Below are positions 3,895 through 27,278 of a stretch of 28,584 nucleotides of DNA, in pieces. Under the pieces are notes generated by a model. The model was not told where the DNA came from, searched no databases, and worked only from the letters and a program-made list of their open reading frames with translations. Origin of the DNA: a virus. Made by a program: the position numbers and the translations under genes. The stretch spans positions 1 through 28,584 of the IMG/VR virus record IMGVR_UViG_3300032805_000015; one strand, 5' to 3'. Within the stretch, counting starts at the first letter, position 1; the number at the start of each line of letters is the position of its first letter.

Positions 3895-5482
3895 GCTCGG
3901 CTTTCAAGCGATGACGGTGGAAGACCCGGCGCAGCCGTGGCTGCCGTATTCGGCCATGGTTGAGTCGCTCTGGTTGGGGCGTTCGGATGCCGGCGTGCTC
4001 ATGAACGAGCACGAGGCCATGCGCATCACTACGGCGCTGGCTTGCGTGAAGATCATCAGCGAGGACCTCGGCACCGTTTCCCGCGAAATCATGCAGAAGT
4101 TGCCGAACCACAGTTTCCGGGTGGCTGACGACCACCGGCTGTGGGGCATGCTGCACGATCAGCCGAATCCCAACATGACGGCTGCGGTTTTCTGGGGCGC
4201 GTTCATCGCCAGCATGCTCGGCTGGGGAGCCGGCTACGCCTGGATCAAGCGCGATGGCGCGGCGCGCGCGACTTCGCTCATCCTGCTTGCGGCCGGCAAA
4301 ACCTCGCCGGTAAAAGTAAACGGCAAGCTGATGTTCGCCACCACGCAAACGGATACGGGTGCGGCAGTAGCGATCGATCCGGAAAACATCCTGTACGTTC
4401 CTTACCTCACTTTCGATGGCGTTACGCCCGTCAGTCCGATCAAGAATTGCAAGAACGCGTTCGGCCTGGCGTATGCCGCGGAGAAGTTCGGTGCGCAACT
4501 GTTCGGCAACGGCGCGCGCGCCACGGGCGTGCTCTCGCATCCGAACACGCTCGAGGGCGAGGCATACGAGAATCTGAAAAAATCCGTGCGCGAGTGGGCC
4601 ACGGGCGAGACGGCGCTGCGCCCGATCATCCTCGAGGAAGGGATGAAATGGGAGCAGATCACCATCAATCCCGAGGATGCGCAGTTCCTCGCCACGCGGC
4701 AGTTTCAGCGCGTCGAGATCGCCTCGCTCTATCGTGTGGCCATGCATCTCCTGCAGGATCTGCAGCGCGCCACGAACAACAATATCGAGCACCAATCGCT
4801 CGATCACGTGAAACACTGTTTGCGGCCGAACGCCGTAAAAATCGAGCAGGAAGTCAACGTCAAGCTGCTCGGCGGTCCGTTCACCATGGAACACAACCTG
4901 AAAGACATGCAGCGTGGCGATTTCGCGAGCCAGGCTGCAGGGTTCCAAACGTTGCGCAATATCGGCGCGTATTCGGTCGACCGCATTCTGGGCGAGATGC
5001 GCGAGAACCCCATCGGCGAAGCGGCCGGTGGCAATATCCGGGTCGTGCAGGGCGCATTCATCAACCTTTTGTCGTTGCTGCCGGGTGGCGGCGAAGGCGG
5101 TGGCTCCACTGCGCCGGCAGATGCCAGTGGTCCGGATGAGTCGCAGCCCTTTGACCGGCTCGGGCCTGCGTTCCGCGTGCTGATGCGCGATGCTGTGGGC
5201 CGGATCATCAACCGTGAAAATCGCGACGCGAAATCGGTACGGAACGCTTTCCGGCCGGTGGTGCTAGCGGCAGTGCAGGCCTCGTTAGCCATGCGCTTCG
5301 GTAATGCCACGTTGACGGACCGTGATTTCAATGAAATCGACGCCATTCTGGCGCAGCTCGAGAAGGCCGCGCCGCAATGGGATCGGAGCCAGGCGTCGGC
5401 GCTTGCCGATCGTCTCACCGGCCTGGTTTACGACACATTTGCAGGCGGACCTGGTGTGCGTCTGCTAACACCTGGAACCTAG
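3875..5482 (+). CDS. Phage portal protein, HK97 family
   Basis: The portal forms the dodecameric ring at one capsid vertex through which DNA is packaged and to which the neck attaches. The 535 residues fit the HK97-type portal family (about 400-530). Recognisable features are the N-terminal MGLLSRRLGF, the AMRITTALACVKIISEDLGTV segment near residues 48-70, the LLHDQPNPNMTAAVFW region near 90-105, and the AYENLKKSVREWATGE and YRVAMHLLQ segments further on. A long low-conservation C-terminal part (from about residue 400, Gly-rich then helical) is typical. Gene order with protease and capsid agrees. The final residues (LLTPGT) and the stop codon are encoded by an intergenic heptamer array, so the natural C-terminus may once have been different. 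Confidence 0.95.
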   Translation: MGLLSRRLGFQAMTVEDPAQPWLPYSAMVESLWLGRSDAGVLMNEHEAMRITTALACVKIISEDLGTVSREIMQKLPNHSFRVADDHRLWGMLHDQPNPNMTAAVFWGAFIASMLGWGAGYAWIKRDGAARATSLILLAAGKTSPVKVNGKLMFATTQTDTGAAVAIDPENILYVPYLTFDGVTPVSPIKNCKNAFGLAYAAEKFGAQLFGNGARATGVLSHPNTLEGEAYENLKKSVREWATGETALRPIILEEGMKWEQITINPEDAQFLATRQFQRVEIASLYRVAMHLLQDLQRATNNNIEHQSLDHVKHCLRPNAVKIEQEVNVKLLGGPFTMEHNLKDMQRGDFASQAAGFQTLRNIGAYSVDRILGEMRENPIGEAAGGNIRVVQGAFINLLSLLPGGGEGGGSTAPADASGPDESQPFDRLGPAFRVLMRDAVGRIINRENRDAKSVRNAFRPVVLAAVQASLAMRFGNATLTDRDFNEIDAILAQLEKAAPQWDRSQASALADRLTGLVYDTFAGGPGVRLLTPGT

Positions 5483-5499
5483 AACCTGAAACCTGGAGG
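5465..5499 (+). repeat. Heptamer array A (portal/protease junction)
   Basis: Five contiguous 7-nt units fitting CTRRMAC: CTAACAC, CTGGAAC, CTAGAAC, CTGAAAC, CTGGAGG. The third unit contains the portal stop codon (TAG, 5480-5482). The last, modified unit CTGGAGG provides the Shine-Dalgarno (GGAGG) for the protease gene at 5507. The array therefore overlaps coding sequence, stop and ribosome site at once. Confidence 0.9.
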
Positions 5500-5506
5500 T
5501 TTTAAC

Positions 5507-6433
5507 ATGCCCCGCAATCTCTCTCGAACGCCGAAAATTCATTCGAGGATGAAACCGTTTTTCAAGGCCGCGCTGCAAGCCGATGGCACGCTCGAGCTGC
5601 TGGTGTACGAAGACATCGGTGAGAACTGGTGGGACGGCGGCGGCATCACCACGAAAACTGTCAAACAGCAGATCGATGCGGCCGGCAACTATTCCAAGAT
5701 CCTGATCCGCATTAATTCACCCGGCGGCGATGCATTCGAGGGCATCGGGATCTACAACCTGGTGCGCGCCACCAAAAAGCCCGTCGAAGTGAATGTGGAC
5801 GGCATTGCGGCGTCCTCGGCCTCGATTATCGCCATGGCCGGCGACGACATCGTCATGGGTCCTAACGCGCTCATGATGATTCACAACGCCTGGTCGTGGT
5901 GCATGGGCTACGCCTCGGACATGCGCAAGATGGCCGAGGCCCTGGACAAAATCTCGGGCGCGATCGCGCAGACCTACGTCACGAAAACGAAAAAAGAGCT
6001 TACCGATGTGCTCGCGTTGATGGACGCCGAGACCTGGATGACGGCGCAGGAATGTCTGGATGGCGGCTTTTGCACCGAGATCGTGAGCGAACCGGATGAA
6101 ACGCAGCCGGCGGCGCTGGCGATGGCGCGGAATTTCAAGGGTCTGAGGCTGCTGAAGAAGGTTCCCGATGCCATCAAACCGAAAGATGGCGTGGCTTGCA
6201 CTTGCGATTGCGACAATTGCGTGGCGGGCGCGTGCGAGAACTGCAACAACGAGGATTGCACCGATCTGAACTGCGTCGATTGCCCGATGCAGGAAGCGGC
6301 TGAAACGGCGGCGCGGGCGTTCGTGCGCCCCGCAGCCGGCATCATGCCGGTGGCTGCGAGCGCGGATCTGGCGGGCTACGAGCGATTGCTCGCCCGCATG
6401 GATCGAGATCGACTTCGGGGTGCTGGCACCTAA
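5507..6433 (+). CDS. Prohead maturation protease, ClpP/S14-like
   Basis: Serine protease of the ClpP fold that matures the prohead by cutting scaffold or delta domains. Core residues 15-210 show INSPGGDAFEGIGIYN (69-84), the nucleophile motif GIAASSAS with Ser103 as the likely catalytic Ser, MMIHNAW with His126, and DAETWMTAQECLDGGFC where Asp173 or Glu175 stands where the acid is expected. This is followed by a feature I do not expect in the family: a Cys-rich segment at residues 231-259 with nine Cys (CTCDCDNC...CENC...C...CVDC), suggesting a metal-binding or disulfide knot in the C-terminal tail. The tail ends in a helix. The start has GGAGG from the preceding array. The stop (TAA) lies in the next heptamer array. 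Confidence 0.93.
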   Translation: MPRNLSRTPKIHSRMKPFFKAALQADGTLELLVYEDIGENWWDGGGITTKTVKQQIDAAGNYSKILIRINSPGGDAFEGIGIYNLVRATKKPVEVNVDGIAASSASIIAMAGDDIVMGPNALMMIHNAWSWCMGYASDMRKMAEALDKISGAIAQTYVTKTKKELTDVLALMDAETWMTAQECLDGGFCTEIVSEPDETQPAALAMARNFKGLRLLKKVPDAIKPKDGVACTCDCDNCVAGACENCNNEDCTDLNCVDCPMQEAAETAARAFVRPAAGIMPVAASADLAGYERLLARMDRDRLRGAGT

Positions 6434-6450
6434 ACCCTAGCACCTAGCAC
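6423..6450 (+). repeat. Heptamer array B (protease/capsid junction)
   Basis: Four contiguous units: CTGGCAC, CTAAACC, CTAGCAC, CTAGCAC, followed by TTGCTTTTTCCC, a pyrimidine tract also seen after other arrays. The second unit contains the protease stop codon (TAA, 6431-6433), so the last residues of the protease (AGT) are array-encoded. Confidence 0.85.
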
Positions 6451-6520
6451 TTGCTTTTTCCCAAGCTTCCCCCTGCGCCAACTAGCCGAGAGGCTGACAG
6501 CCGGGAAGCGTGCGATGCAA

Positions 6521-6538
6521 CGAACGCCAGGGCGTTCG
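6521..6538 (+). promoter_or_regulatory. Hairpin in the capsid gene leader
   Basis: The 120-base leader before the capsid ATG (6451-6573) contains a perfect inverted repeat, CGAACGC-CAGG-GCGTTCG, that would form a 7-bp stem with a 4-base loop in the mRNA. It ends about 35 bases before the start codon. No T-run follows, so it is not a classical terminator; it could stabilise or process the capsid mRNA. The role is inferred. Confidence 0.4.
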
Positions 6539-6573
6539 CGGGCTCGACACCAAACGAGGAGAGCATTTCAGAA

Positions 6574-7953
6574 ATGGCGTACCAGAAGGCACTACGTGAG
6601 AAACTGGCGCGGCTGTCTGCGGACATGCACGCAATTCTGGATGTGGCGAAAGCCGACAACAATCGCGGCCTGACCTCCGACGAGCGCACCAAGTGGCACG
6701 CGTTGCAGGAGGAGTACAACAACGTCGAGAAGGACATCGAGATCGCTGAAGCGACGGAGAAAATCAGCAACGCTCTGGGCGCGCCGGCGAGTCCCGCTGC
6801 TGCGGCGGCGAGGCCTGGCCAACCGCAGATCGCGGAATTCACCGTCGAGCAGATGCGAGATATGTTCTCGCTCAAGCCGGCGCAGGTGCGTGAGCGCGAG
6901 AAGTTGTATGCCGCGAATCCTTACGAGCGGGCGTTCCATAACTATCTCCGGCAGGGCATGCAGCACGAGGGCGCGTCGGGCATCAGCTCGGATGATCGCA
7001 ATTTGCTCACGCAGATTACGGTGCAGAACGCGCAATCGGGCACGGTGGGCAGCCAGGGCGGTTATCTGATCCCGCAAGGATTCTCGGACAACCTGATGGA
7101 GGCGATGAAGTGGTTTGGTGGAATCGATGGCGTGGTCGGAGAGTTTCCGACCTCGACCGGCAACCAGGTGCCCTGGCCGACCATCAACGACACCACGAAC
7201 AAAGGCCGCATCCTGGGGCAGAACGTCCAGGCTGTTGAAACCGATTTCGTGACGGGCCAGGTGATGTTCAACGCCTACATCGGATCGAGCGATATCGTGC
7301 TGATCCCGATCGCGCTGATCGAGGACAGCTATTTCGATATGGACGCGCTGACTGCTCGGCTGCTCGGAATCCGGCTCGGCCGTCTGCTGAACTGGAAGGG
7401 CACGGTGGGCACGGGATCGAGCGAGCCCACCGGCATCGTCACGGCCGCTGCGAATGCGGGTAATGTCGTACAGCTTGCTGCGGGCAACACCACGAGCATT
7501 TCGTACGCGAACCTAGTTACTGTCGAGCACTCAGTCGATCCGGCATACCGCTTCAACCCGGCCACTCGCTGGATGATGTCCGATGCCGAGTTGAAAAACA
7601 TCAAGCTGCTCACCGACAGCCAGGGGCGCCCGTTGTGGCAGCCTAGCCTGACGGCCAGCTTCCGCGAGGGCGCGCAGGTAGACATCACGGCGTCGAAGCC
7701 GACCATCCTGGATCATCCCTACATCATCAATCAGGACATGGCCACGCCCGCCGCAAGCGCGTATTCGCTGCTGTTCGGCGATATGAGCCTGTTCAAGCTG
7801 CGCCGCGTGGCTGGCGGCATTACGGTGCAGCGCCTGGTGGAGCGTTATGCAGAGTATTTGCAGGTCGCGTTCCAGGCGTTCATGCGATTCGACTGCAATC
7901 TGGTGGACGCCGGTACGCATCCGATCGCGGTCATGCAGCAATCGGCGACGTAG
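6574..7953 (+). CDS. Major capsid protein, HK97 fold
   Basis: The shell protein of the head. The ATG at 6574 with GAGGAGA upstream gives 459 residues; the frame is open further upstream but that sequence is low in protein character. Residues 1-about 110 are a charged coiled-coil region (LREKLARLSADMHAILD...EEYNNVEKDIEIAEATEKI) acting as the internal delta/scaffold domain that the ClpP-like protease would remove. The capsid core starts around GSQGGYLIPQGF (about residue 158) and continues with the typical N-arm, the VPWPTINDTTNKGRIL segment, DSYFDMDALTARLLGIRLGRLLNWKGTVGTGSSEPTGIV, RWMMSDAELKNIK and the C-terminal YLQVAFQAFMRFDCNLVDA. These are hallmarks of the HK97-type Phage_capsid family. 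It follows the protease in the usual order. Confidence 0.96.
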   Translation: MAYQKALREKLARLSADMHAILDVAKADNNRGLTSDERTKWHALQEEYNNVEKDIEIAEATEKISNALGAPASPAAAAARPGQPQIAEFTVEQMRDMFSLKPAQVREREKLYAANPYERAFHNYLRQGMQHEGASGISSDDRNLLTQITVQNAQSGTVGSQGGYLIPQGFSDNLMEAMKWFGGIDGVVGEFPTSTGNQVPWPTINDTTNKGRILGQNVQAVETDFVTGQVMFNAYIGSSDIVLIPIALIEDSYFDMDALTARLLGIRLGRLLNWKGTVGTGSSEPTGIVTAAANAGNVVQLAAGNTTSISYANLVTVEHSVDPAYRFNPATRWMMSDAELKNIKLLTDSQGRPLWQPSLTASFREGAQVDITASKPTILDHPYIINQDMATPAASAYSLLFGDMSLFKLRRVAGGITVQRLVERYAEYLQVAFQAFMRFDCNLVDAGTHPIAVMQQSAT

Positions 7954-7960
7954 AAAAAAG

Positions 7961-8026
7961 CAGGTTCCAGGTGTTAGGCGTCAGGGACATCCTAAAACCT
8001 AACACCTAACACCTAGCACCTAACAC
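7961..8026 (+). repeat. Inverted plus direct heptamer array C (after capsid gene)
   Basis: Two heptamers in reverse orientation (GTTCCAG, GTGTTAG at 7964-7977, preceded by a partial unit) face five in direct orientation at 7992-8026 (CTAAAAC, CTAACAC, CTAACAC, CTAGCAC, CTAACAC). GGTGTTAG pairs with CTAACACC, so the transcript could fold into a stem of at least 8 bp with several alternative registers. It lies between the capsid stop and the next gene. Confidence 0.85.
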
Positions 8027-8050
8027 CTCGTGAGTAAAAGGAGCAACTCA

Positions 8051-8383
8051 ATGAAGAAACGCGTAAAAATTCTGCAATCCATCGCGGGTACGGGCGATCC
8101 GTCCAAAGAGGACCTGGAGCGCAAGTACACGCGCATTCGAAGCGAGGCTATCGTGCGCTCCAATGCGGCGAAGCAGATCGGTAAGCCGGGAAAGACCGAA
8201 GCGGAAATTGACTCCCTCGTGAACGAGGAGAAGAAGCGGGACGCCGCCATTCCGCGGCTGTCCGGTCACATCGGCCAGTTCGCCTACAAGCCGGGCGACG
8301 AAGTGGCGCTCGACGCGGAGCTGGCAGAGAAGTGGGAAGCGTGCGGCGTCTGCACGCTTCTGCCGAATCAAAAAGCGGCGTAA
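8051..8383 (+). CDS. Small capsid-associated hypothetical protein, 110 aa
   Basis: The ATG follows AAAAGGAGCAACTCA, a good ribosome site. The protein is very charged and basic at the N-terminus (MKKRVKILQ), helical in the middle, with a C-terminal part (GQFAYKPGDEVALDAELAEKWEACGVCTLLP) whose 'Y-K-P-G-D-x-V-x-L-x...A-x-x-W-x-x-x-G' pattern is typical of small proteins encoded just after capsid genes in many phages; those have a short beta-rich fold and usually no assigned role. Two Cys lie near the end. It is flanked on both sides by inverted-plus-direct heptamer arrays. Confidence 0.6.
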   Translation: MKKRVKILQSIAGTGDPSKEDLERKYTRIRSEAIVRSNAAKQIGKPGKTEAEIDSLVNEEKKRDAAIPRLSGHIGQFAYKPGDEVALDAELAEKWEACGVCTLLPNQKAA

Positions 8384-8386
8384 AAA

Positions 8387-8465
8387 CAGGTGCCAGGTGT
8401 TAGCGAACGCTGTCTGCTGAAACCTGAAATCTGACACCTAGCAGCTAGAACCTAGCACCTGATTT
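8387..8465 (+). repeat. Inverted plus direct heptamer array D
   Basis: Two reverse-oriented units (GTGCCAG, GTGTTAG at 8390-8403) followed by six or seven direct units at 8417-8465: CTGAAAC, CTGAAAT, CTGACAC, CTAGCAG, CTAGAAC, CTAGCAC, then CTGATTT leading into TTCC and the ATG at 8469. Same design as the array after the capsid gene, so a hairpin can form between the arms. No Shine-Dalgarno lies in front of the next gene; the array and its pyrimidine end occupy that place. Confidence 0.85.
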
Positions 8466-8468
8466 TCC

Positions 8469-9362
8469 ATGGCTTTGACCCTTGTCACGCCGCCGCCGGT
8501 TGAGCCGGTGTCGCTGCTCGAGCTGAAAGAGTTCGTGCGTGTGGACGCCGGCGACACCTCGCAAGACAATCTGCTGACCACTCTCGGGATGGCGGCGCGC
8601 ACATGGGTCGAAGCCTTTCTGCAGCGGCGGCTGGTGCAGCAGGTGTGGAACCTGCAGCTCGATTACTTCCCTGGCCAGATCGATACCAAGCTCGCGAACC
8701 AGGCGTTCTCAACGCCGCTGGTGAGTGGCGGAACGGCGCTGCTTTCGGGGCTGCGCTACGCGATCCGGCTTCCCTATCCGCCGGTTTCGCAGATCGGCAG
8801 TTTCACGTTCACATCGCCGAACGGGAATGTGATCGCGCTCGAGCCGGGCGTGGATTATACGGCGGATCTGGCTGCTAATCCGGCGCGCCTGGTTCCGTTT
8901 TTCGGCAAGATGTGGCCGCCGGCGATGGTGATTCCGAATGCGATTTCCGTGATCTACGTCTTGGGTTACGCCATGTTCCTGGTGGTGAGCCTGACGAGCA
9001 CCAGCGCGCCGTACACCGCAATCCAGGCGCAAAATTACGTGTTCGAGCCCAGCGATATCAACCGGCCGATTTCCATCGATGGCGCTGGGCCGAACGGGAG
9101 CGCGCTGAACACAGTGATAGCGAGCATCTCGTCGCCGCCGGATTCGAACGCCGTATTGCGCGATGAGGCCATTTCCGGCGTAAAAAACGCGGACGCACTG
9201 CTGGTGAACAATCCCAACGCGAATCCCGCGCACTGGGAGCTGGCGAAATCGGGCATCAAGCTGCTGGTGGAACGTTGGTTCGAAATCCGCGTGCCTGACG
9301 AGAACACGGTGCCGGCAGCGGTGCGATCGCTACTCAGCCCGGCCAGGAATCTGATCGTCTGA
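8469..9362 (+). CDS. Head-tail connector (gp6-like) with internal insertion
   Basis: A neck protein that sits under the portal. The N-terminus (VTPPPVEPVSLLELKEFVRVD...DNLLTTLGMAARTWVEAFLQRRLV) is the classical gp6/gp15-like helical start. The usual PLPYPPV-type loop, beta region (GSFTFTSPNGNVIALEPGVDY) and 'P-N-A-I-S-V-I-Y-V-L-G-Y' follow. At about residues 168-238 the family pattern is interrupted by a beta-rich segment (including EPSDINRPISIDGAGPNGSAL) that looks like a tail-fibre or tailspike module. The chain then returns to the family's C-terminal helices (HWELAKSGIKLLVERWFE...VPAAVRSLLSP). Length 297 is well above the usual 100-200. Coupled to the next gene by TGATG. Confidence 0.85.
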   Translation: MALTLVTPPPVEPVSLLELKEFVRVDAGDTSQDNLLTTLGMAARTWVEAFLQRRLVQQVWNLQLDYFPGQIDTKLANQAFSTPLVSGGTALLSGLRYAIRLPYPPVSQIGSFTFTSPNGNVIALEPGVDYTADLAANPARLVPFFGKMWPPAMVIPNAISVIYVLGYAMFLVVSLTSTSAPYTAIQAQNYVFEPSDINRPISIDGAGPNGSALNTVIASISSPPDSNAVLRDEAISGVKNADALLVNNPNANPAHWELAKSGIKLLVERWFEIRVPDENTVPAAVRSLLSPARNLIV

Positions 9363-9736: not shown

Positions 9737-10038
9737 ATACGAACGTGGCGTTGGCGGACTGCAGGTCCGCCAAATCGGTGTTCGCGGCCTATTCGGCTAA
9801 GCCACATGGCGGGTTTTCGGCTGCAGCCGCCTCTTCCCAAGTGCCAAACTTTAGTTCGCGGTTTGAGGCTGGCGACCATGAGTCCTCATTCCGAATCAAC
9901 TCTCCTGCTGGTTTCCTTGAAGACTTATCGAACAGTGAAAAACGAGTGGGTTCCGTCTCGGACTGATAAAGATCGAAGGGCATCAGTGCCCGATTCTAAC
10001 AGGAAAGTATCGACGTAACGCACTGTTTGCGTCCCGAA
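9737..10038 (+). other. Non-coding stretch with palindromes, REP-like
   Basis: About 300 bases between the head closure gene and the glycosyltransferase. It holds a perfect stem-loop at 9751-9773 (TTGGCGGAC, loop TGCAG, GTCCGCCAA) and a 12-bp palindrome at 9818-9829 (CGGCTGCAGCCG). A frame of 77 codons opens at 9733 but has no ribosome site of its own, poor protein character and no similarity I recognise, so I treat it as non-coding. The composition differs from the flanking genes. It may be a dispersed repeat element or the scar of an insertion that brought in the glycosyltransferase. Confidence 0.45.
9751..9773. repeat. Perfect 9-bp inverted repeat
   Basis: TTGGCGGAC and GTCCGCCAA are exact inverted copies around a 5-base loop, TGCAG. 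The hairpin starts 14 bases after the head closure stop. There is no T-run, so it is not a typical intrinsic terminator. It resembles REP-type palindromes that are scattered between genes in many bacterial genomes. Confidence 0.6.
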
Positions 10039-10704
10039 ATGAATCCGCTGGTCACCTGCCTTTGCCTCACGCACAATCGCCGCGAATGGCTGCCCGCCGC
10101 GATCAGTTACTATCTGCGCCAGACCTATCAGCCGCGCGAGTTGCTCGTGGTGGCGACGGGCGATGAGCCGGTGTGCGACCTGGTGCCTCGCGACGATCCA
10201 GCCATCACGCTGCTGAACATCGGCTGGACGGTGAAGGTCGGCGAGAAGCGGAATCTGGGGTGCGAAGCTGCCCGCGGCGGAATCATCGCCGTGTGGGATG
10301 ACGACGATTACTCCGCACCGAAACGCCTGGAGTTTCAGGTTGTGCGCCTCGAGGCCACGCAGAAGGCGGTCACCGGCTTCCGCGTCATGAAGTTCACTGA
10401 TGGCCGGCGCTGGTGGCGATACACGGGGCATTCCGGGTTCGTGCTGGGCACGTCGCTCTGTTTCCGGCGCGAGTGGTGGCGAATGCATCCATTCGCCGAT
10501 CTGCAGGTCGGCCAGGACGAAATGTTCGGGGCCGAAGCGCAGCGCGAGCAGCAGCTCGCTTTCGAAGGCGATCACGACCTGATGTATGCGACGGTCCACC
10601 CCGGCAACACCAGCCCGCGCGTGATCTCCGGTCCTGCTTGGGCCGAGCTCCCCGCCTTCGTCTGGCCGGAACTCGAACTGGCTGGAGTGTTGAGAGAACC
10701 ATGA
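10039..10704 (+). CDS. Glycosyltransferase family 2
   Basis: A GT-A fold glycosyltransferase of 221 residues. The N-terminus (VTCLCLTHNRREWLPAAISYYLRQTYQPRELLVV) is the nucleotide-sugar binding start of family 2, and the VWDDDDY motif (Asp87-90) is the DXD-type metal and sugar-nucleotide site. A later segment (HSGFVLGTSLCFRREWWRMHPF...GQDEMF) fits the acceptor side, with DE as a candidate catalytic base. It has no membrane segment, so acts in the cytosol. The ATG at 10039 has no clear Shine-Dalgarno; a TTG lies at 10027. The position between neck genes is unusual; it may decorate a virion protein or alter host surface sugars. It is probably an accessory insertion. Confidence 0.85.
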   Translation: MNPLVTCLCLTHNRREWLPAAISYYLRQTYQPRELLVVATGDEPVCDLVPRDDPAITLLNIGWTVKVGEKRNLGCEAARGGIIAVWDDDDYSAPKRLEFQVVRLEATQKAVTGFRVMKFTDGRRWWRYTGHSGFVLGTSLCFRREWWRMHPFADLQVGQDEMFGAEAQREQQLAFEGDHDLMYATVHPGNTSPRVISGPAWAELPAFVWPELELAGVLREP

Positions 10705-10719
10705 AAGGTAGGAGAAAAC

Positions 10720-11088: not shown

Positions 11089-11104
11089 TTGAGGGTGCCC
11101 GAGC

Positions 11105-11530: not shown

Positions 11531-11588
11531 TTTCCGCAGATACCGGTGGAAGCCGGTGTCTGGATAGCTCAACCAAAGGAGAACCACC

Positions 11589-13734: not shown

Positions 13735-13789
13735 GATATGTGCCTTTGGGCTATTGAGAGGAAGCCGCTGCGACAGGCACTATGTTGAC

Positions 13790-14275
13790 ATGAAGCCTCT
13801 CCTCTGCTGCGCGGCTATCGTGGTTCTGATGCTTGTTTTCTGTGGCTGTGACCGGGACCGGGAAAAGCTTATGGAGATCCGGCACGAGTCGAGAATGAGC
13901 AGTAGCCTGAGGCTTGAGAATGACGAGCTGCGGCTGAAAAATGACCAAACCGCGAACGAGATCGCTGAACTGGAGCACAGGCGCAAGGACCTCCGCAAAA
14001 TCGCGGTCGATGAGGCGATCATCCGGGAGGACTACCTGGCCAACGATGTTGCCCGGCGCATCTACGAACTGAGGAACAACACTGCGGTGCGGAAGCAAAT
14101 CGATGCACTAGATGAAGGTCTCGACGAGATGGTTGAGCGCTGCGGCTTGGGCGGCTTGGACAAGGGCGGCATCAAGACCATGCAGGATTTGGAAACGCGC
14201 TGCAGTGACCTGAACGCCGCAGCGAAACAGATCGAAGCGATCTGGCTGTCCACACAACCCGTGGCTGAACGCTGA
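13790..14275 (+). CDS. Lipoprotein-like coiled-coil protein, 161 aa
   Basis: N-terminus MKPLLCCAAIVVLMLVFCGC is a signal sequence ending in FCGC, with Cys20 as the likely lipidated residue, although the lipobox is imperfect (Phe at -3). The mature part is a long charged helix (HESRMSSSLRLENDELRLKNDQTANEIAELEHRR) with heptad character, then a helical region with two more Cys. An exported lipoprotein between the gp10-like and tape measure genes is not part of a standard tail; it may act at the envelope in superinfection exclusion, as many prophage lipoproteins do. No strong ribosome site; a TTG at 13754 is an alternative start. The stop (TGA) lies in the first heptamer of the following array. 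Confidence 0.6.
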   Translation: MKPLLCCAAIVVLMLVFCGCDRDREKLMEIRHESRMSSSLRLENDELRLKNDQTANEIAELEHRRKDLRKIAVDEAIIREDYLANDVARRIYELRNNTAVRKQIDALDEGLDEMVERCGLGGLDKGGIKTMQDLETRCSDLNAAAKQIEAIWLSTQPVAER

Positions 14276-14376
14276 CACCTAGCACCTAGCACCTGAAACC
14301 TGTCTTTCCGCTGACACCTAGCACCTAACACCTGAAACCTGTTTTTCCCTAGCACCTAACACCTGGAACCTCTCTT
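14272..14376 (+). repeat. Heptamer array E, three blocks before tape measure gene
   Basis: The longest array. Block 1 (14272-14310): CTGACAC, CTAGCAC, CTAGCAC, CTGAAAC, then CTGTCTTTCCG. Block 2 (14311-14348): CTGACAC, CTAGCAC, CTAACAC, CTGAAAC, then CTGTTTTTCC. Block 3 (14349-14376): CTAGCAC, CTAACAC, CTGGAAC, then CTCTCTT and the tape measure ATG. So the array has a higher-order 38-39 base period: heptamers plus a pyrimidine tail. The first unit holds the lipoprotein stop codon. There is no Shine-Dalgarno before the ATG. Confidence 0.92.
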
Positions 14377-17112
14377 ATGGCCCGCAAAGCCGGCGTCATC
14401 ACCATCAATCTGAACGCGGGTACGGCGCAGTTCTTCGCCGACATGGACCGCGCGAACGCCAAGATCCGCGAATTCGGAACGGGTCATGTCACCGAGGCGC
14501 GCGCGACCGCCGCGGCGATGAAGACGCTCGAGGGGAACCTACTCAGCAACACGCGTGCGGCCGATAAGTTCCTGGAATCGGTGCTCGGGATGGGGCCGGT
14601 GATGCAGGCGGCATTTCCGATCATAGGCGGGATCGCCTTCGGCGGGATGCTCGTCGATATCGGGAAAAAAGCGTATGAGTTCTGGAAAGGCATGCAGGAA
14701 GGCCCCAAGAAAATCGCTATTGCTTTCCGGGAACTCAACGCGCCGCTACGCCTGACCAACGACGAGCTGGCCCTCTCGAATGCGCGCCTGGCGAACGATA
14801 TCGCGCAGCTCGAGGGAAAGCGGCAGAACAATCTCGCCGTGGCGCTCGCCGAGGCCGTGGTGCAGGCAGATAAACTGGCCGATTCTCTGGACAAGGATCT
14901 TAGCGGTTTGGACAAGCTGCTCGAGCAGCAAAAGGTGGGATTTTGGGAGCAGCTTTTTGGCAAAGCGGGCACATCAGACCTAAAGGAAGAAATTGGCGAC
15001 TTTCGGGAGCGAATCGCCGACATCACTGCGGAGGGGAATGAAAAGATACGCCGGGCGACGGATCTGAAGGCGAAGGATGCCGCGCAGCTCGAATTGAACA
15101 CGAAACTGCAGAAGGCCTATGGCGACGAGCTGGCCAAAGTGAACCAGCACATCAAAGAGGCGCAGGACCTGGCCAAGCCGCGTACGGTGGAAACCTACGG
15201 ATATGCGCAGGGGCCGGTGATGCGCACGACGGTGGGTGCAGATGAGAGCGCGCGCCTCAAGATGCTGGAGAGTATGCGTATCCGGCTTCAATATGAGTCC
15301 GCCGGGATCGATTTGAGCGCGACTCAGGGCAATTTGGCGGCGCGCAAAACGGCTCTCCAGGAAAGCGCCGCCGCCGCCGTAGAGCGGCCATTCGAAGACC
15401 GGATGAACGCGATTCGCGCCCAGATCGACGCCGTGAACGAAAAGATGAAGGCCATCGGCCAGCCCGAAGCGGCGCAGATCATGGCCAAAGCCTTCGGCGA
15501 CGCGGAAAAGGCGATCACCGAGGTGAATAAAACCCTCGAGCATCACCAGACGCAGTTGACCGGTGCGCAAAAGGCGCAGATCACCGCAGCCGAGCAGACG
15601 CTGGCCACCGCCGAGGCCGAGGCGCAGTGGCGCACGCGCCTGGCCGCGTCTACGACGGCGATCAACGATCGCATTGCTTCCACGAATTTGCTCACAGCGG
15701 CGATCGGCAAGGGCTACGAAGCCGTGCGTGCGGCGAATGTGGAGTCGCGCCTGATGGAATTCACGGCGCAATATGGTGCAGATTGGGCGCGCACACCAGA
15801 GCACAATGCGGAAATCGCCCAGCTCCGCTCCCGCTACCAAGCCGAGTTCGACGCCAAGCACGGGGAGCAACAGGCGCAGGCGATTGCCCATTTGCACGAG
15901 CAGATTGACCTTGAGCACGCGCTTGCGGCGGCGCAGGCGCAGGGCGCGGAAGCGGTCCGCCAGGCCGCGCTTGCCGAACGTCTGCGCCAGCTCGGCATCG
16001 CCGGTGCGAGCCGTGAGCAGTTGGCGGTCGAGAAGGAGCTGGCCGAAGCGCAGCGCGAAAACGCAGTGGCGGCCGGCATCGCCAAAATTGACGAGCGTAT
16101 CGAAGCGACCGAGCGCCTGACGGCAGCCACGCTCAAGAGCGCGGCAGCGGTGCGTGAGGCAACACTCGCTAATCGTCTGGCCGCGATCGCGCGCGAGGGC
16201 GATGTGGGTGGGCAGCGTGCGGCGGCAGCGACGCGCGAGGCCTCTGCCGATCGGGGCCTGGAGCTGGCCCGCGTGGTGGCGCGCACGGACCGAGTTCGCG
16301 CGATCGATGATGAGATCGCCACGCTCGAAGAAGCTAGAGCCACGCTCGGCGATACCGCCGGCATCGAGACACGTCTGCTCGAGCTGGAGCAGCAGCGGCT
16401 CAAGGCCGCGATCGATGAAACCCTGGCGCTCGGCCGCGCGCGCGATGGCGTGAAGGCGTTCTTCGAGGAAATGCAGATGCAGGCGAAGACCTCGGCCAGC
16501 ATCATCTACGATGCGCTGAACGAGGCGCTCGATCGCACCTCGGCGAACCTGGCGAAGCTCATCACTGGGCAGGGCAAAAAAGGCGATTGGGGCGCGGAGT
16601 TCAAGGAAATCGGTACGCAGATGACGGAATCCACCATCAAGAGCGTCATGCAAAAAGGGCTCGGAGCGTTCGGTGGGGTCTTTGGCATTGGCGGCAAAGC
16701 GGACGGATCGAGCGCCGCAAGCGCGCTGTGGGTGCGTATCGCAGGCGGCGGTGGCGCGCCGTCATTGCCTCTGCCCGGCGCTGGTGGCGGCGGTGGTGAG
16801 GGCGGCGGCGGCACGCCCTGGTTCGCATCACTGTTCAGCGGCTGGATGGCCGGCGGCGGCGATGTGCTTCCGGGGAACATCTACGGCGTCGGCGAAAGCG
16901 GCCCGGAATTTTTCATCCCGTCGTCGAGCGGGCAGATCGTGCCGCGTGCGGCGGTGAGCGGCACTTCGGTTCTGTACCACATCGACGCGCGCGGCGCGGA
17001 CCTTGGCGCCTCGAACCGCATCCGCCAGGCGATCGAAATGTCCCATCGCGTGGCGGTGGCCACGGCAGTGCAAGCCAGCCACGAGCGCGCCCGGCGCGTC
17101 CCAAGCAAGTAG
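14377..17112 (+). CDS. Tape measure protein
   Basis: The 911-residue protein that sets tail length and is ejected ahead of the DNA. The start (KAGVITINLNAGTAQFFADMDRANAKIREFG) is the usual 'tape measure N-terminal' pattern. A hydrophobic stretch lies at about residues 68-92 (LGMGPVMQAAFPIIGGIAFGGMLVDIG). Long Ala/Glu/Arg helices fill residues 110-690, including three repeats centred near residues 450, 527 and 592. A Gly-rich linker follows at about 785-815, and the C-terminal GGGDVLPGNIYGVGESGPEFFIP motif (about 828-850) is diagnostic. At about 0.15 nm per residue it predicts a tail near 130-140 nm, a long siphovirus-type tail. No Shine-Dalgarno; a pyrimidine tract from the array precedes the ATG. 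Confidence 0.95.
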   Translation: MARKAGVITINLNAGTAQFFADMDRANAKIREFGTGHVTEARATAAAMKTLEGNLLSNTRAADKFLESVLGMGPVMQAAFPIIGGIAFGGMLVDIGKKAYEFWKGMQEGPKKIAIAFRELNAPLRLTNDELALSNARLANDIAQLEGKRQNNLAVALAEAVVQADKLADSLDKDLSGLDKLLEQQKVGFWEQLFGKAGTSDLKEEIGDFRERIADITAEGNEKIRRATDLKAKDAAQLELNTKLQKAYGDELAKVNQHIKEAQDLAKPRTVETYGYAQGPVMRTTVGADESARLKMLESMRIRLQYESAGIDLSATQGNLAARKTALQESAAAAVERPFEDRMNAIRAQIDAVNEKMKAIGQPEAAQIMAKAFGDAEKAITEVNKTLEHHQTQLTGAQKAQITAAEQTLATAEAEAQWRTRLAASTTAINDRIASTNLLTAAIGKGYEAVRAANVESRLMEFTAQYGADWARTPEHNAEIAQLRSRYQAEFDAKHGEQQAQAIAHLHEQIDLEHALAAAQAQGAEAVRQAALAERLRQLGIAGASREQLAVEKELAEAQRENAVAAGIAKIDERIEATERLTAATLKSAAAVREATLANRLAAIAREGDVGGQRAAAATREASADRGLELARVVARTDRVRAIDDEIATLEEARATLGDTAGIETRLLELEQQRLKAAIDETLALGRARDGVKAFFEEMQMQAKTSASIIYDALNEALDRTSANLAKLITGQGKKGDWGAEFKEIGTQMTESTIKSVMQKGLGAFGGVFGIGGKADGSSAASALWVRIAGGGGAPSLPLPGAGGGGGEGGGGTPWFASLFSGWMAGGGDVLPGNIYGVGESGPEFFIPSSSGQIVPRAAVSGTSVLYHIDARGADLGASNRIRQAIEMSHRVAVATAVQASHERARRVPSK

Positions 17113-17116
17113 TTAC

Positions 17117-17129
17117 CTAACATCTGATG
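17117..17129 (+). repeat. Heptamer remnant F
   Basis: The 14-base gap between the tape measure stop and the next ATG reads TTACCTAACATCTG. CTAACAT plus CTGATGT are two degenerate units; the second contains the ATG at 17127. It looks like a short or decayed copy of the arrays found at neighbouring junctions. Confidence 0.5.
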
Positions 17130-17708: not shown

Positions 17709-17718
17709 CCTCCGTTCG

Positions 17719-17744
17719 CTAGCACCTAAGCACCTGGAACTTCT
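17719..17744 (+). repeat. Heptamer array G
   Basis: CTAGCAC, an 8-base variant CTAAGCAC, and CTGGAAC, then TTCT and the TTG start codon of the next gene at 17745. The insertion of one base breaks the strict period. Again no Shine-Dalgarno is present. Confidence 0.8.
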
Positions 17745-18326: not shown

Positions 18327-18344
18327 CCATCTCTCGGGGGATCT

Positions 18345-19292: not shown

Positions 19293-19671
19293 GCACGAGG
19301 GCCACCGCTTCCAGTACGGAACCTGGGACTGCGGTCTGTTCGTCGCGGGCGCGATCCGCGCGATGACGGAGACTGATCCCGCCCTGGACGTGCGCGGCCT
19401 GTACGCGTCTCGAACCGAGGTTATGGACCTGATGCGCTTGCATACCGGGACAGCGCGGCTGAGCGGGATGGTTGAAAGGATCGCCACGCGGATGGGGATG
19501 CCGGAGATTCCGGTTTCGTCGGCGTGTCGCGGCGATGTGTTACTGTTGCGGCGTTCGCGTGGAAATTCACTCGCGCTGATGGCGCTGGATGGTCACAGCG
19601 CACTGGTTTTGGGATGGAAAGGCATCCGCAAAATCGCCGAGCCCGCGATCGCCCGCGCCTGGCGAGTGTGA
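19243..19671 (+). CDS. Tail peptidase, NlpC/P60-like (DUF6950 type)
   Basis: A 142-residue protein in the place of lambda K / GTA Orf14. The start ATG at 19243 has AAAGGAT upstream and overlaps the previous gene by 50 bases. The key motif is FQYGTWDCGLFVAGAIRAMT with Cys30 as the candidate nucleophile. CRGDVLLLRR (the GDVLL turn) and DGHSALVLGWKGIRKIAEPAIARAWRV follow; the closing 'A-R-A-W-R' is typical of DUF6950. These proteins are thought to cut peptidoglycan at the tail tip during entry or serve as assembly factors. The His of the catalytic pair is not obvious (His at DGHSAL is the best candidate). Confidence 0.7.
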   Translation: MTRYPDWPVRLERFLLEHEGHRFQYGTWDCGLFVAGAIRAMTETDPALDVRGLYASRTEVMDLMRLHTGTARLSGMVERIATRMGMPEIPVSSACRGDVLLLRRSRGNSLALMALDGHSALVLGWKGIRKIAEPAIARAWRV

Positions 19672-20068
19672 CGGCGACGTTTTCTGCTGCTCTGGCGGAT
19701 ACGAATGCTGCTGCCGGAGTGCTGAAGGACATTCCGTAGCTGATGATGTGAGGACAATCGAGCCCTGTGAGGGCGATGTATATGTGCTCATGTGTGAAAG
19801 TCCGGACTTGACCTTGCATATCGCCCTGTCCGATGCACTCGCGACTGTCAGATTTGAGGCAAGAGCGCACTTCCGGAAGCCAAACTTCAAACTAGGCCCG
19901 ATTCGTTCGTGGCCACCAAGGACCCCCAAATCTCAGCAACGCGGGTTTCCGTCAAGTTTGACTGGAGGTTTACAGTCATAAGAATTAGCTTCCGACCCCC
20001 GGCCGTCGCTCGCCCAGGGCGCGCCAGCCCGCGCGAAACACGAAAATCAGCGAAAATAACAAAAACCC
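19672..20068 (+). other. Long intergenic region before the NACHT gene
   Basis: About 400 bases, large for this tightly packed phage, between the peptidase and the NACHT gene. It is AT-richer at its right end (AAACACGAAAATCAGCGAAAATAAC) and has a promoter-like pair at 19958-19985. A weak open frame starting at 19790 (63 codons, ending at 19981) has no ribosome site and I do not call it. No heptamer array is present, unlike the other large gaps. This is what the left flank of an inserted cargo gene could look like. Confidence 0.5.
19958..19985 (+). promoter_or_regulatory. Candidate sigma-70 promoter for NACHT gene
   Basis: TTGACT (19958-19963), a 16-base spacer and AAGAAT (19980-19985). The -35 matches TTGACA at five of six bases and the -10 matches TATAAT at four of six. 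It lies about 84 bases before the NACHT ATG in a gap without other function, so an own promoter for the cargo gene is plausible. Single promoter matches by eye are weak evidence. Confidence 0.3.
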
Positions 20069-22093
20069 ATGCGCTGGCGCCGAGGACTCGTCGTTGCTGT
20101 TCTTTCCGCGGTGCTGCTCATGGTGGCGGATGTCTTCAAAAACATCATTGCCACTATCCTCTACGATCCATCGAAGCACGTTTCGTACACCAATAAATGG
20201 GTAGCTCTGGCCCTTGCTTTCTTGGCTGCACTGGTCGTTGGGGCCTCCGCGTACAGGGTGTGGAAGCGCGATAAAACGGACAGAGCCGAGGAACCCGGCC
20301 AGCCGCATCTGGAAATGCGTCAGAGGCTCATCAATCGTGTGCTGGAGTTCGCCCAATCCCAATTCGATAGCGGTCTTTATACCAAGGCCCGTAAGGAGTT
20401 TCACCTTGCCGAGCGGCCGTTGCGCATCACCACGGTTGAGGATCGCGCTTTGGAAGTCACGATTGAGCATTATTACCGGAGCCTGCAGGTGCCACTGGTC
20501 ATCTTAGGCGAGCCGGGGACCGGTAAGACTACGCTGCTCTATGAACTCGCCACACTACTTGCGCCTCGCAATGACTACGACCCGATATCGGTTCCGTTTG
20601 GCCTCTCGAACTGGGCGCTGAGCGAGGGACCGCTCGAAGAGTGGCTCGCGGCCGAGCTAAAGCGCGACTACGGCGTCAGCCTTTCGCTCGCCAAATCCTG
20701 GGTGAAGAACGAAACAGTTTTGCCGTTGCTAGACGGCTTGGACGAAGTGCCCGCGGCAGGACGCGCCGGCTGCGTAGATCGCATAAACGCGTACCGAACG
20801 GCACACCCGGAGATCAAGCCTGTGATCACATGCCGCGAAGCGGAGTACGGGGAACTGAAGGGCGGCATCGAGGCTACATCAGCCGTGGTCGTGCGCACGC
20901 TTGATCGCCCGGAGGTGAAAACGTTTCTCGAAATGAACGCGCAAAAGTTCGGCGGGCTGCGCAGAGCATTGGATACCGAGCCCGGCCTGTGGGATCTGAT
21001 GACCACACCCCTAATGCTTTGGATTGGGACGTTTGCCTTCGAAGACGATCACGTTCTACCGGCAAGCACGGAAGTCGACCAGATGAGGGAACATCTATTT
21101 ACGCGCTACGTGAACCAGATGCTGAGGCGGGAAAGAGGTCAAGATAATTCGCGCCGTGATGAACTGTTTTCTGTACCGGCTGCCAAATTCTGGCTGCATC
21201 AGACAGCGGTGTGTATGGGACGCGCTGGGTTGTTCAGCTTTCATCTAGAGGATCTTTCTGTGAATTGGCTGCCGGAGCCACAGGGTCAGGCAGCCAATTG
21301 GAGAATGCGTGAAGTCGTCGCGCTGGTCGGCGGGCTGGGTGGCGCGCTGGCCGGTGCGGTGGTCGGCTGCCTGGACGGCGGGCTTGTCCCTGGGCTGGTT
21401 GGCGCGGTGGCGGGCGGGCTTTTCTCCGGGCCGGCCTGGCTGGTGGGGGGCGGCGGGCTGGGTTCTCTGGGTCCCGTTGACGCAATCAATTGGTCTGGCG
21501 CGGGAGCGATAAGGGGGCTGGCCGGCGGCGGGCTGGTCTTCGCGCTGGGCGGCGCGCTGGCCGGTGGGGTGGTCGGCTGGCTGGCGCGCGGGCTGGTCTT
21601 CGGGCTGGGCGGCGCGGTGGCGGGCGGGATGGTCGTCGCACTGGTCCTCCTGCTGTTCGGCGGGCTGTCTGCCTCTTCAGTGCAACAGAGGTCTGTTGTA
21701 AACGGGGGGCTTAAACAATCAGCAACCTACGCGGGAAGGATGTGGTTTTGTGGTTTGCTCAGTTTTTCGGTAGCTCTTTTGGTGAGGAGCCAGATCAGTA
21801 ACCGTCAAATCGATATTCTCGGCGCTGTATTTGTTTTGTTTGCGTCCCTGTGCCCCTATCTGATGGTACTCGGCTTAGTAAAAGGCGGCTGCTTTTGCAT
21901 CCAGAACCTCACGATGCGCTACCTTCTCGCGCGAAGAAAACATATTCCATGGCGCTATGCGACCTTCCTCTATTTTGCGGTCGAGCGGGTTCTGATGATT
22001 CGCCAGGGAGGTTCGTTCCGCTTTATCCATCGCATGCTTCAGGAGCACTTGGCTAAACATCCTCCTGCCGAGCAGCCGCATGCGCGCCCGTGA
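20069..22093 (+). CDS. NACHT-domain NTPase with N- and C-terminal membrane segments
   Basis: A 674-residue STAND NTPase. Two membrane helices at about 6-24 (GLVVAVLSAVLLMVADVF) and 43-63 (KWVALALAFLAALVVGASAY). NACHT core from about 140: Walker A GEPGTGKTT (147-155), Walker B LLDGLDEV with Asp222, Asp225 and Glu226, followed by CREAEY (sensor-1-like, 'T-C-R') and the helical WLHQ region. Residues about 415-530 are a Gly-rich, multi-span segment built of repeated GLVFxLGGAxAGGxV units, then more spans, and the FIHRMLQEHLA end that is common to membrane NACHT proteins. Bacterial NACHT proteins protect against phage; a membrane C-terminus could sense or disrupt the envelope. It is inserted among tail genes with its own gap and possible promoter, and has no ribosome site in view. 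A prophage-encoded defence or superinfection-exclusion gene is inferred. Confidence 0.85.
   Translation: MRWRRGLVVAVLSAVLLMVADVFKNIIATILYDPSKHVSYTNKWVALALAFLAALVVGASAYRVWKRDKTDRAEEPGQPHLEMRQRLINRVLEFAQSQFDSGLYTKARKEFHLAERPLRITTVEDRALEVTIEHYYRSLQVPLVILGEPGTGKTTLLYELATLLAPRNDYDPISVPFGLSNWALSEGPLEEWLAAELKRDYGVSLSLAKSWVKNETVLPLLDGLDEVPAAGRAGCVDRINAYRTAHPEIKPVITCREAEYGELKGGIEATSAVVVRTLDRPEVKTFLEMNAQKFGGLRRALDTEPGLWDLMTTPLMLWIGTFAFEDDHVLPASTEVDQMREHLFTRYVNQMLRRERGQDNSRRDELFSVPAAKFWLHQTAVCMGRAGLFSFHLEDLSVNWLPEPQGQAANWRMREVVALVGGLGGALAGAVVGCLDGGLVPGLVGAVAGGLFSGPAWLVGGGGLGSLGPVDAINWSGAGAIRGLAGGGLVFALGGALAGGVVGWLARGLVFGLGGAVAGGMVVALVLLLFGGLSASSVQQRSVVNGGLKQSATYAGRMWFCGLLSFSVALLVRSQISNRQIDILGAVFVLFASLCPYLMVLGLVKGGCFCIQNLTMRYLLARRKHIPWRYATFLYFAVERVLMIRQGGSFRFIHRMLQEHLAKHPPAEQPHARP
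21313..21660 (+). repeat. Gly-rich tandem repeat inside NACHT gene
   Basis: Imperfect DNA repeats encode units such as LVGGLGGALAGAVVGCLDGG, LVPGLVGAVAGGL, LVFALGGALAGGVVGWLARG and LVFGLGGAVAGGMV. The unit is about 18-20 codons. The two right-hand copies are the most similar. GxxxG-type packing fits membrane helices; the repeat number could change by slippage or recombination. Confidence 0.7.
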
Positions 22094-22231
22094 CTTCATT
22101 CGCGCTTTCCAGCGTTGCCGTTTCCTTTTCCATGGTGCGCTGGATTCGACCGCGCGACCTTGAAAACGTGTCCGCTGATTCCAGCGGCGCATTCGATGTC
22201 CGTGAGGTCAAGTTGAAGCTATTACAGCTTC

Positions 22232-22321
22232 ATGTATCCGGATCACCTGCGCATGGAAGCGTACGAGGGCATCAAGGTCGCATGGCACGCAATCTTCGGT
22301 CCGGATACGCCGCGGGTCTGA
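22232..22321 (+). CDS. Possible mini-protein or gene fragment, 29 aa
   Basis: MYPDHLRMEAYEGIKVAWHAIFGPDTPRV reads like ordinary protein (balanced, with aromatic residues) and not like a random frame, but is only 29 codons, with a stop 15 bases upstream and no strong ribosome site. It may be a small phage gene or the end of a gene broken when the NACHT gene arrived. Uncertain. Confidence 0.25.
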   Translation: MYPDHLRMEAYEGIKVAWHAIFGPDTPRV

Positions 22322-22378
22322 TTCTCGATGGCGTCGCGACCATTGCCACAATACAGACACCTCCGAAGTTTGGGCCTG

Positions 22379-22417
22379 CTGGCACCTAACACCTAACACC
22401 TGAAACCTGCCTTTTCG
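22379..22417 (+). repeat. Heptamer array H (before tail-tip gene)
   Basis: CTGGCAC, CTAACAC, CTAACAC, CTGAAAC, then CTGCCTTTTCG and the ATG at 22418. Same design as the blocks before the tape measure gene. No Shine-Dalgarno is present. Confidence 0.9.
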
Positions 22418-27101: not shown

Positions 27102-27125
27102 AGAAACAAGACACCCAATTTTGTC

Positions 27126-27154
27126 TGGACTGCGAAAGCAAGCTCTGTTAAATT
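27126..27154 (+). promoter_or_regulatory. Candidate promoter for the right-end gene
   Basis: TGGACT (27126-27131) and TTAAAT/TAAATT (27148-27154) with 16-17 bases between. Each box matches the sigma-70 consensus in about four positions. It lies in an AT-rich gap 125 bases before an ATG with a strong ribosome site. Weak, by-eye evidence. Confidence 0.25.
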
Positions 27155-27278
27155 ATTGAAGATTGTCGGTCGAGTTGTAGTTTGCCACGTGTTACCGGAC
27201 GCAAACGGTTGGGGGTGTTGTCCTCTAACGGGTCCTGTCAATCGGTATCGCTCTCGGGCTCAAGGAGGCTCCCACATC

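What the first reader, a model, noticed from the sequence alone, without database searches (positions are those of the whole stretch)
5465..22417. Degenerate 7-nt repeat (CTRRMAC)n fills the gaps between phage structural genes
At least seven junctions carry short tandem arrays of a 7-base unit: 5465-5499, 6423-6450, 7961-8026, 8387-8465, 14272-14376, 17719-17744 and 22379-22417, with a remnant at 17117-17129. The units vary at three sites (R, R, M) but keep CT and the closing AC and the strict period of seven. The arrays are always between genes, never deep inside one. Heptanucleotide tandem repeats are known between genes in some cyanobacteria (STRR sequences); I know of no such family described as spacing the virion genes of a phage. 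The spread over so many junctions of one operon suggests an active copying process or selection for function.
Basis: partly seen in the sequence, partly recalled or inferred. Interest (0 to 1): 0.82.

Follow-up and report, generated by a model that had tools for sequence, protein, structure and literature searches.

The report
Four-heptamer boxes between phage genes
Between its virion genes this soil phage carries short boxes of about four 7-base repeats, a kind of box also scattered between genes in several groups of bacteria including its probable acidobacterial hosts, and because the boxes keep a fixed size and their constant letters while three letters vary freely, they look like a widespread, undescribed type of gene-junction element rather than random repeat expansion.

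Summary
The arrays are real: 29 double-unit matches against 0.11 expected by chance, all at gene junctions. They are not a phage invention. The same mixed CTRRMAC arrays occur between genes in many bacterial genomes (Acidobacteriota, Gemmatimonadota, Desulfobacterota, Lentisphaerota, Chloroflexota) and in other, unrelated phages. The window's mix of units matches one Bryobacteraceae genus, and that family also holds the nearest cellular relatives of its capsid gene. None of 46 related phage contigs has them, so they were gained in this lineage.

New anatomy: (1) array size peaks sharply at four units, (CCTRRMA)4CCT, about 31 bp. (2) Two arrays often pair in one polarity only, (GTKYYAG)n-centre-(CTRRMAC)n, roughly 120 against 3. 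(3) Positions 3-5 vary independently. Between congeneric species the other four positions are 98% conserved at shared sites and these three only 68%; in a third congener the boxes are decaying. (4) Hairpin pairing and all-frame stops are not what is selected.

Best explanation (inferred, 0.4): cooperative double-stranded DNA sites for an unidentified host heptad-binding protein, working like parS/omega heptads but not members of that family. In the phage they also supply stop codons for four upstream genes and form the hairpin behind the capsid gene.

The parts
5465..5492 (+). array of 4 heptads between portal and head protease, running into CTGGAGG; stop codon of portal (TAG 5480-5482) lies inside it
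   Evidence: relatives' portal ends mostly 0-5 aa after residue 523-525
6423..6450 (+). array of 4 heptads (one with 1 mismatch) between protease and major capsid gene; protease stop TAA 6431-6433 inside it
7964..8026 (.). inverted dyad behind the major capsid gene: 3 reverse units (7964-7984), 7-nt centre, 5 forward units (7992-8026); predicted hairpin -26.9 kcal/mol
8390..8458 (.). inverted dyad between ORF 8030-8383 and ORF 8469-9362: 2 reverse units, 13-nt centre, 6 forward units; predicted hairpin -26.8 kcal/mol
14272..14299 (+). first of three consecutive arrays before the tape measure gene, 4 heptads; stop TGA 14273-14275 of ORF 13754-14275 inside it
14311..14338 (+). second array, 4 heptads
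14349..14369 (+). third array, 3 heptads, 7 nt before the ATG of the tape measure gene
17719..17740 (+). imperfect array (7-8-7 nt units) between the distal tail gene and the next tail gene
   Evidence: read from sequence
17117..17129 (+). possible single-unit remnant before the distal tail gene; not distinguishable from chance
22379..22406 (+). array of 4 heptads before the tail fibre J gene; stop TAA 22387-22389 of ORF 22090-22389 inside it
3875..5482 (+). portal protein gene
   Evidence: PHROG 12, 1.8e-85
5507..6433 (+). head maturation protease gene
   Evidence: PHROG 94, 1.6e-75
6451..7953 (+). major head protein gene
   Evidence: PHROG 10, 1.2e-53
14377..17112 (+). tape measure protein gene
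   Evidence: weak PHROG 10574 tail tape measure hit; match to L213
22418..26320 (+). central tail fibre J-like gene
   Evidence: PHROG 5616, 6.4e-51 and PHROG 31, 2.6e-22

Best explanation
SHOWN: the phage junctions carry copies of a modular element that is common in some bacterial genomes. One module is about four 7-bp units, (CCTRRMA)4CCT, alone or as an inverted pair with fixed polarity around a variable centre. Letters C1, T2, A6 and C7 are kept; letters 3, 4 (purine) and 5 (A or C) vary freely and independently. INFERRED: each unit is one binding site, and a run of about four is a cooperative platform for a multimeric, heptad-reading, double-stranded-DNA-binding protein of the host. R (shared purine N7) and M (shared amino group) are the degeneracies expected when a protein reads major-groove chemical groups rather than exact bases. 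The phage gained the sites in its host's unit mix, probably by recombination with or long residence in such a host. They settled at gene ends because an array in coding orientation brings its own stop codon (TAA/TAG/TGA in most units) and because a dyad can stand in for the hairpin that related phages have behind the capsid gene.
For: Array size peaks at 4 units: 3/4/5 units = 1/25/6 (G005), 6/23/2 (G016), 7/23/2 (G009), window 2/5/1, with a fixed end register. Polarity -+ against +-: G005 14:0, G016 8:0, G009 16:0, G014 7:0, 120 genome loci 52:2, viral 21:1, window 2:0 (the sets overlap in part). Positions 3-5 are independent in window and G016 (observed/expected 0.94-1.07) while the other positions hardly vary. 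Congeneric G005 and G016 share array sites in synteny: constant positions 98/100 identical, R,R,M 51/75, Fisher P = 2e-8; in G314, which has only 2 perfect triple units, the orthologous arrays are eroded at constant positions too. No common orientation to transcription: 15 G-strand to 3 C-strand in the Bryobacteraceae, 15 to 31 in viral contigs, 25 to 23 in the 120 genome loci, which favours recognition of double-stranded DNA. Arms do not covary and hairpins are no more stable than with redrawn units. Host-type unit mix and nearest cellular capsid relatives in the same family. 0 arrays in 46 related phage contigs. Precedent: pSM19035 ParB (omega) dimers each bind one 7-bp heptad, bind direct and inverted pairs with high affinity, and need at least 4 contiguous heptads for full ParA activation (PMC9499535).
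Against: No binding protein was identified. Omega_Repress (PF07764) gave no hit in 8 genomes, though the control did not ring either. Hundreds of sites next to functionally unrelated genes would be unusual for a regulator. Different genomes leave different positions free (CTGAMAC, CTGRAAC, CTRAAAC, CTRRMAC), so a family of proteins with shifted specificities is needed. Unit gain and loss inside arrays (site 12699, and the 16-unit array at the dnaK-like junction) shows that slippage also acts. The host link rests on unit mix and 54-65% capsid identity, not on a direct host record.
Confidence: 0.4

Rival explanations
1. Neutral or selfish repeats: 7-bp slippage and template switching create and spread the arrays, and selection merely removes those that land in genes. 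Phages pick them up from hosts.
For: Heptamers are the commonest long simple repeats in many prokaryote genomes, and polymerase slippage over 7 nt has been proposed (Mrazek 2007 as cited in PMC4679880). Unit gain and loss is seen between congeners. Control heptamers are amplified in other genomes, e.g. G189 with 257 reversed-pattern matches on each strand, and in viral contigs. Distribution is very patchy: 31 of 396 Acidobacteriota genomes.
Against: Slippage predicts homogeneous arrays and falling counts with length. Observed: mixed units with no adjacent-unit similarity in the window and a peak at four units. Fixed polarity of pairs, about 120 to 3. Constant positions conserved at 98% against 68% for R,R,M between species.
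Confidence: 0.27
2. Intercistronic RNA hairpins or attenuators: dyads fold in mRNA and regulate termination, processing or reinitiation; single arrays are half-decayed dyads.
For: All five relatives examined have a strong hairpin at the capsid/next-gene junction with unrelated sequence (-21 to -45 kcal/mol), and the window has a heptad-built one there (-26.9, z -5.7). Gemmatimonadota centres are often stem-loops themselves.
Against: Arms do not covary. Folding energy equals that of randomly redrawn units (mean z about 0). Many arrays are single and unstructured, e.g. 14276-14376 with z +0.8. A hairpin alone does not explain the polarity.
Confidence: 0.14
3. Translational spacers: each unit holds TRR, mostly a stop codon, and the period of 7 puts stops in all frames; arrays end one cistron and space the next start.
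For: Four upstream genes in the window end on in-array stops. All single window arrays have the stop-bearing strand as mRNA.
Against: TGG units are not avoided (observed/expected 0.97 in window and G016). Bacterial single arrays are not in this orientation. The reverse strand has few stops in most unit mixes.
Confidence: 0.08
4. Templated addition: a reverse-transcriptase-like enzyme copies a short RNA template with three ambiguous positions onto broken 3' ends, which are then joined, as in head-to-head telomere fusions.
For: Fixed length near 31 nt, fixed end register, independent draws at three positions, and polarity with both G-strand 3' ends facing a variable centre.
Against: Orthologous arrays persist at the same sites across species with some shared R,R,M states (68%, above the roughly 53% estimated from the base frequencies), so arrays are not rewritten often. 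No enzyme or template was looked for. Single-arm arrays are common.
Confidence: 0.06

Closest known systems
TAACTGA direct repeats of marine Beggiatoaceae, cyanobacteria and some Bacteroidetes (MacGregor 2015, PMC4679880)
   Same: 7-nt units, short arrays of mostly 2-6 copies, intergenic, close to start codons, also inside ribosomal protein operons, patchy across phyla, proposed post-transcriptional binding sites
   Different: One fixed unit there and related heptamers almost never repeated; only one inverted case reported. Here three free positions, frequent fixed-polarity dyads, a size peak at four, other phyla, and phages
STRR heptanucleotide repeats of cyanobacteria
   Same: Heptanucleotide tandem repeats between genes
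   Different: Described for cyanobacteria with defined units; here mixed units and non-cyanobacterial hosts. Compared from general knowledge only
parS of pSM19035 bound by ParB (omega), heptads WATCACW (PMC9499535)
   Same: Contiguous 7-bp asymmetric heptads, direct and inverted, degenerate positions, at least four contiguous heptads needed for full activity, placed by genes
   Different: Different heptad sequence, few sites per replicon, RHH protein not detected here; the inverted arms here are separated by a centre
Start Associated Sequences and inverted-repeat extensions of Cluster K mycobacteriophages (PMC3203893) and Microbacterium phages (PMC7302621)
   Same: Short repeated elements placed before many phage genes, some with inverted repeats and variable spacer, function unknown
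   Different: 13-bp and 17-bp single motifs, phage-specific and nearly absent from the host; here heptad arrays shared with bacterial genomes
REP/BIME palindromic repeats
   Same: Many intergenic inverted pairs in one genome
   Different: No heptad periodicity in REPs; Y1 transposase genes do not track array number here (G314 has most among the three congeners, and fewest arrays)

Membership tests
TAACTGA repeats | unit TAACTGA with single-base variants rarely repeated | tested here: not met
   units are a mix of all eight CTRRMAC words; feature taken from PMC4679880
TAACTGA repeats | short intergenic arrays near start codons | tested here: met
   window arrays 0-14 nt before downstream starts where called
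STRR of cyanobacteria | heptanucleotide tandem repeats in intergenic DNA | tested here: met
STRR of cyanobacteria | homogeneous defined unit in a cyanobacterial genome | tested here: not met
   mixed units; nearest cellular relatives Bryobacteraceae
pSM19035-type parS/omega | contiguous 7-bp heptads, direct or inverted | tested here: met
pSM19035-type parS/omega | heptad sequence WATCACW | tested here: not met
   unit CTRRMAC; consensus from PMC9499535
pSM19035-type parS/omega | omega (PF07764) gene present | tested here: inconclusive
   0 of 8 array-bearing or congeneric genomes, but no control genome rang
REP/BIME | palindromic single unit rather than tandem heptads | tested here: not met
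   units are non-palindromic 7-mers
REP/BIME | array number follows a Y1 (RAYT-like) transposase | tested here: not met
   Y1_Tnp hits G005 7, G016 2, G314 15 against triple-unit matches 104, 74, 2
Start Associated Sequences | conserved 13-bp motif at the ribosome binding site, absent from the host | tested here: not met
   heptad arrays shared with bacterial genomes; feature from PMC3203893
intrinsic terminator/attenuator hairpins | base pairing maintained by covariation | tested here: not met
   no arm covariation within genomes; energies equal to redrawn units

The most novel reading that the evidence does not exclude
A bacterial enzyme copies a short RNA or DNA template with three ambiguous positions, a telomerase-like process, onto broken DNA ends and leaves fixed-size (CCTRRMA)4CCT tracts, head-to-head pairs and host-specific variants, including in resident phages.
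Probability: 0.06. Interest if true: 0.95.

Novelty: new variant of a known kind. Interest (0 to 1): 0.62.

Why it matters
Heptanucleotide repeats between bacterial genes have been noted for decades without a mechanism. The size peak at four units, the fixed dyad polarity, the three independently variable positions, the conserved sites with eroding copies in one congener, and the presence of the host's unit mix in a phage together turn a vague repeat family into a testable element. One DNA pull-down or one comparison of array-rich and array-poor congeners could reveal the factor behind it. It would also give a way to assign phages to hosts by unit mix.

Tried and rejected
All-frame stop codons as the selected feature: TGG units not depleted and no matching orientation in bacteria. 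Simple slippage: no adjacent-unit similarity in the window, size peak at four. RNA hairpin selection: no arm covariation, no energy advantage. Omega-type repressor: no PF07764 hit, inconclusive. REP/RAYT: transposase number does not follow array number. Exact window word CTAGCACCTAACACCTGRAACCT in viral contigs: no hit. Megablast of the head region against named phages: none. Portal search in 17 array-bearing genomes: none. Raw abundance of the pattern in viral contigs is not special against two control patterns. Searches of 5.39 million open papers found no description of mixed CTRRMAC arrays; subscription papers are not covered.
Full report
OBSERVATION. The window is a 28,584-base virus record of IMG/VR type with a standard tailed-phage module: portal, head protease, HK97-type capsid, connectors, major tail protein, tape measure, distal tail protein, J-like fibre. 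CTRRMAC arrays lie at its junctions far above chance (29 double units against 0.11). Four single arrays overlap the end of the upstream frame and provide its stop codon. In related phages the portal usually stops 0-5 residues after alignment position 523-525, i.e. at about residue 528, which is where the array begins in the window. In many relatives the portal and protease genes abut or overlap. The array is therefore an addition at a gene end.

WHERE ELSE. Of 46 contigs of related phages (portal or capsid mostly 46-66% identical), none has an array of two units. Two relatives show other heptamers: L209 has CTGAATT-type arrays and L206 has CACTGACC-like sequence at the junction behind ORF 8030. 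Mixed CTRRMAC arrays are common in bacterial genomes. In the richest single genomes 100-300 matches stand against control counts of 2-6. In 396 Acidobacteriota genomes only 31 have a triple unit and few have many. Each rich genome has its own free positions: CTGAMAC in Desulfobacterota, CTGRMAC in Gemmatimonadota, CTGRAAC or CTRAAAC in some Acidobacteriota, and all three free in G005, G016 and the window. G005 (Terriglobia MAG of locus L156) and G016 (Bryobacteraceae MAG of L178) are in one genus by the search tool. The nearest cellular relatives of the window's capsid gene are in that family: 65% in G521, and 54-62% in G016 itself. A Bryobacteraceae host is likely but not proved.

OTHER PHAGES. 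The same arrays sit at junctions of unrelated phages. L025 has a dyad before a portal, arrays between protease and capsid, and a dyad upstream of the tape measure region. L046, L055 and L079 form one family with arrays flanking a tape-measure-like gene. L077 has three successive dyads. L040 has an array directly after a head protease. Raw counts of such arrays in viral contigs are similar for control heptamers (69 against 51 and 35), so only mixed composition and polarity set them apart: neighbouring arrays are -+ 18 and +- 1 here, against 2 and 4 for the reversed control.

ANATOMY. In genomes sampled with a pattern that only needs three units, array length peaks at four (1/25/6, 6/23/2 and 7/23/2 for 3/4/5 units). 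Ends are in register, usually nothing or C before and CT or CTR after, giving (CCTRRMA)4CCT, 31 bp, about three helical turns. Pairs are nearly always (GTKYYAG)n-centre-(CTRRMAC)n with centres of 4-60 nt. Letters 3, 4 and 5 combine independently in the window and G016. Adjacent units are not alike in the window. Arms of a dyad do not match each other beyond chance in most single genomes (G014, with multi-copy elements, is marginal at z 2.1), and predicted hairpins are no better than with randomly redrawn units.

EVOLUTION. A 19.6-kb stretch of G005 aligned to G016 and G314 at 75-85% identity shows that four of five array sites are shared by all three species at the same intergenic place, often with the same unit number; the fifth is absent from the other two. 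Across 25 aligned units of G005 and G016, constant positions are 98/100 identical and R,R,M 51/75 (Fisher P = 2e-8). In G314, with two perfect triple units in 9.1 Mb, the orthologous arrays have changes at constant positions too. A further shared dyad lies after a gene whose end reads like dnaK (my reading of the translation). It has expanded to 16 units in G005 and is eroded in G314. This pattern means constraint on CT--AC with freedom at R,R,M, and loss of that constraint in one species. The counts rest on few sites, and the units were aligned by hand.

FUNCTION. Orientation to transcription differs between sets: the Bryobacteraceae have 15 G-strand to 3 C-strand single arrays, viral contigs 15 to 31, the 120 genome loci 25 to 23 (gene calls were simple ORFs). 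An RNA-strand role is therefore unlikely to be general and double-stranded DNA recognition is favoured. The closest working model is parS of pSM19035: 7-bp heptads, direct or inverted, one ParB dimer per heptad, full ParA activation only with four or more contiguous heptads (PMC9499535). The arrays here are not members of that family: the heptad differs and no omega gene was found, though that search had no positive control. In the phage, secondary roles are plausible. The dyad behind the capsid gene sits where five relatives carry an unrelated strong hairpin, and the single arrays supply stop codons.

KNOWN KINDS. The nearest published family is the TAACTGA repeats of Beggiatoaceae and cyanobacteria (PMC4679880): intergenic, short, near starts, in ribosomal protein operons, of unknown function. 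It has one fixed unit and almost no inverted cases. I therefore rate the present element a new variant of a known kind. The binding-protein mechanism is an inference at 0.4. Slippage with selection is the main rival, and a templated-addition process is the most novel reading not excluded.

Noticed in passing
L296:292-2333 (G016:C683): A capsid gene related to the window's is split into at least five pieces; three of the gaps match the group I intron family RF00028 (E about 1e-14 to 1e-15), so one phage capsid gene carries at least three group I introns.
   Followed up: partly
window 20069-22093: A NACHT-domain protein (PF05729, 1.2e-9) with long Gly/Leu-rich 12-base repeats (21314-21667) sits between tail genes, possibly a defence or cargo gene.
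   Followed up: partly
window 10027-10704: A family 2 glycosyltransferase gene lies inside the head-tail connector region and is found at the same place in several related phages (L205-L209).
   Followed up: partly
L209:476-510 and L209:19009-19043; L206:2340-2425: Related phages carry other heptamers (CTGAATT-type, CACTGACC-like) at intergenic places, as if each phage bore a different host's unit type.
   Followed up: partly
L113, L117, L124, L338-L344: In Desulfobacteraceae (Eth-SRB2 and relatives) several dyads share an identical or near-identical 18-nt centre CGCCTCTGTTCATCATTC and flanks, so there the dyad seems to travel with a longer multi-copy element.
   Followed up: no
L323 (G005:C26:270958-271069): A 16-unit array largely of alternating CTAACAC/CTGAAAC at the dnaK-like junction shows recent 14-bp expansion.
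   Followed up: partly
window 27100-28584: The right end looks lower in GC than the rest, has only short ORFs and was not annotated; it may be a separate module or host DNA.
   Followed up: no
G189, G214, G325, G371: Several Acidobacteriota genomes have dozens to hundreds of matches to the reversed control heptamer CAMRRTC, i.e. other amplified heptamer families.
   Followed up: no
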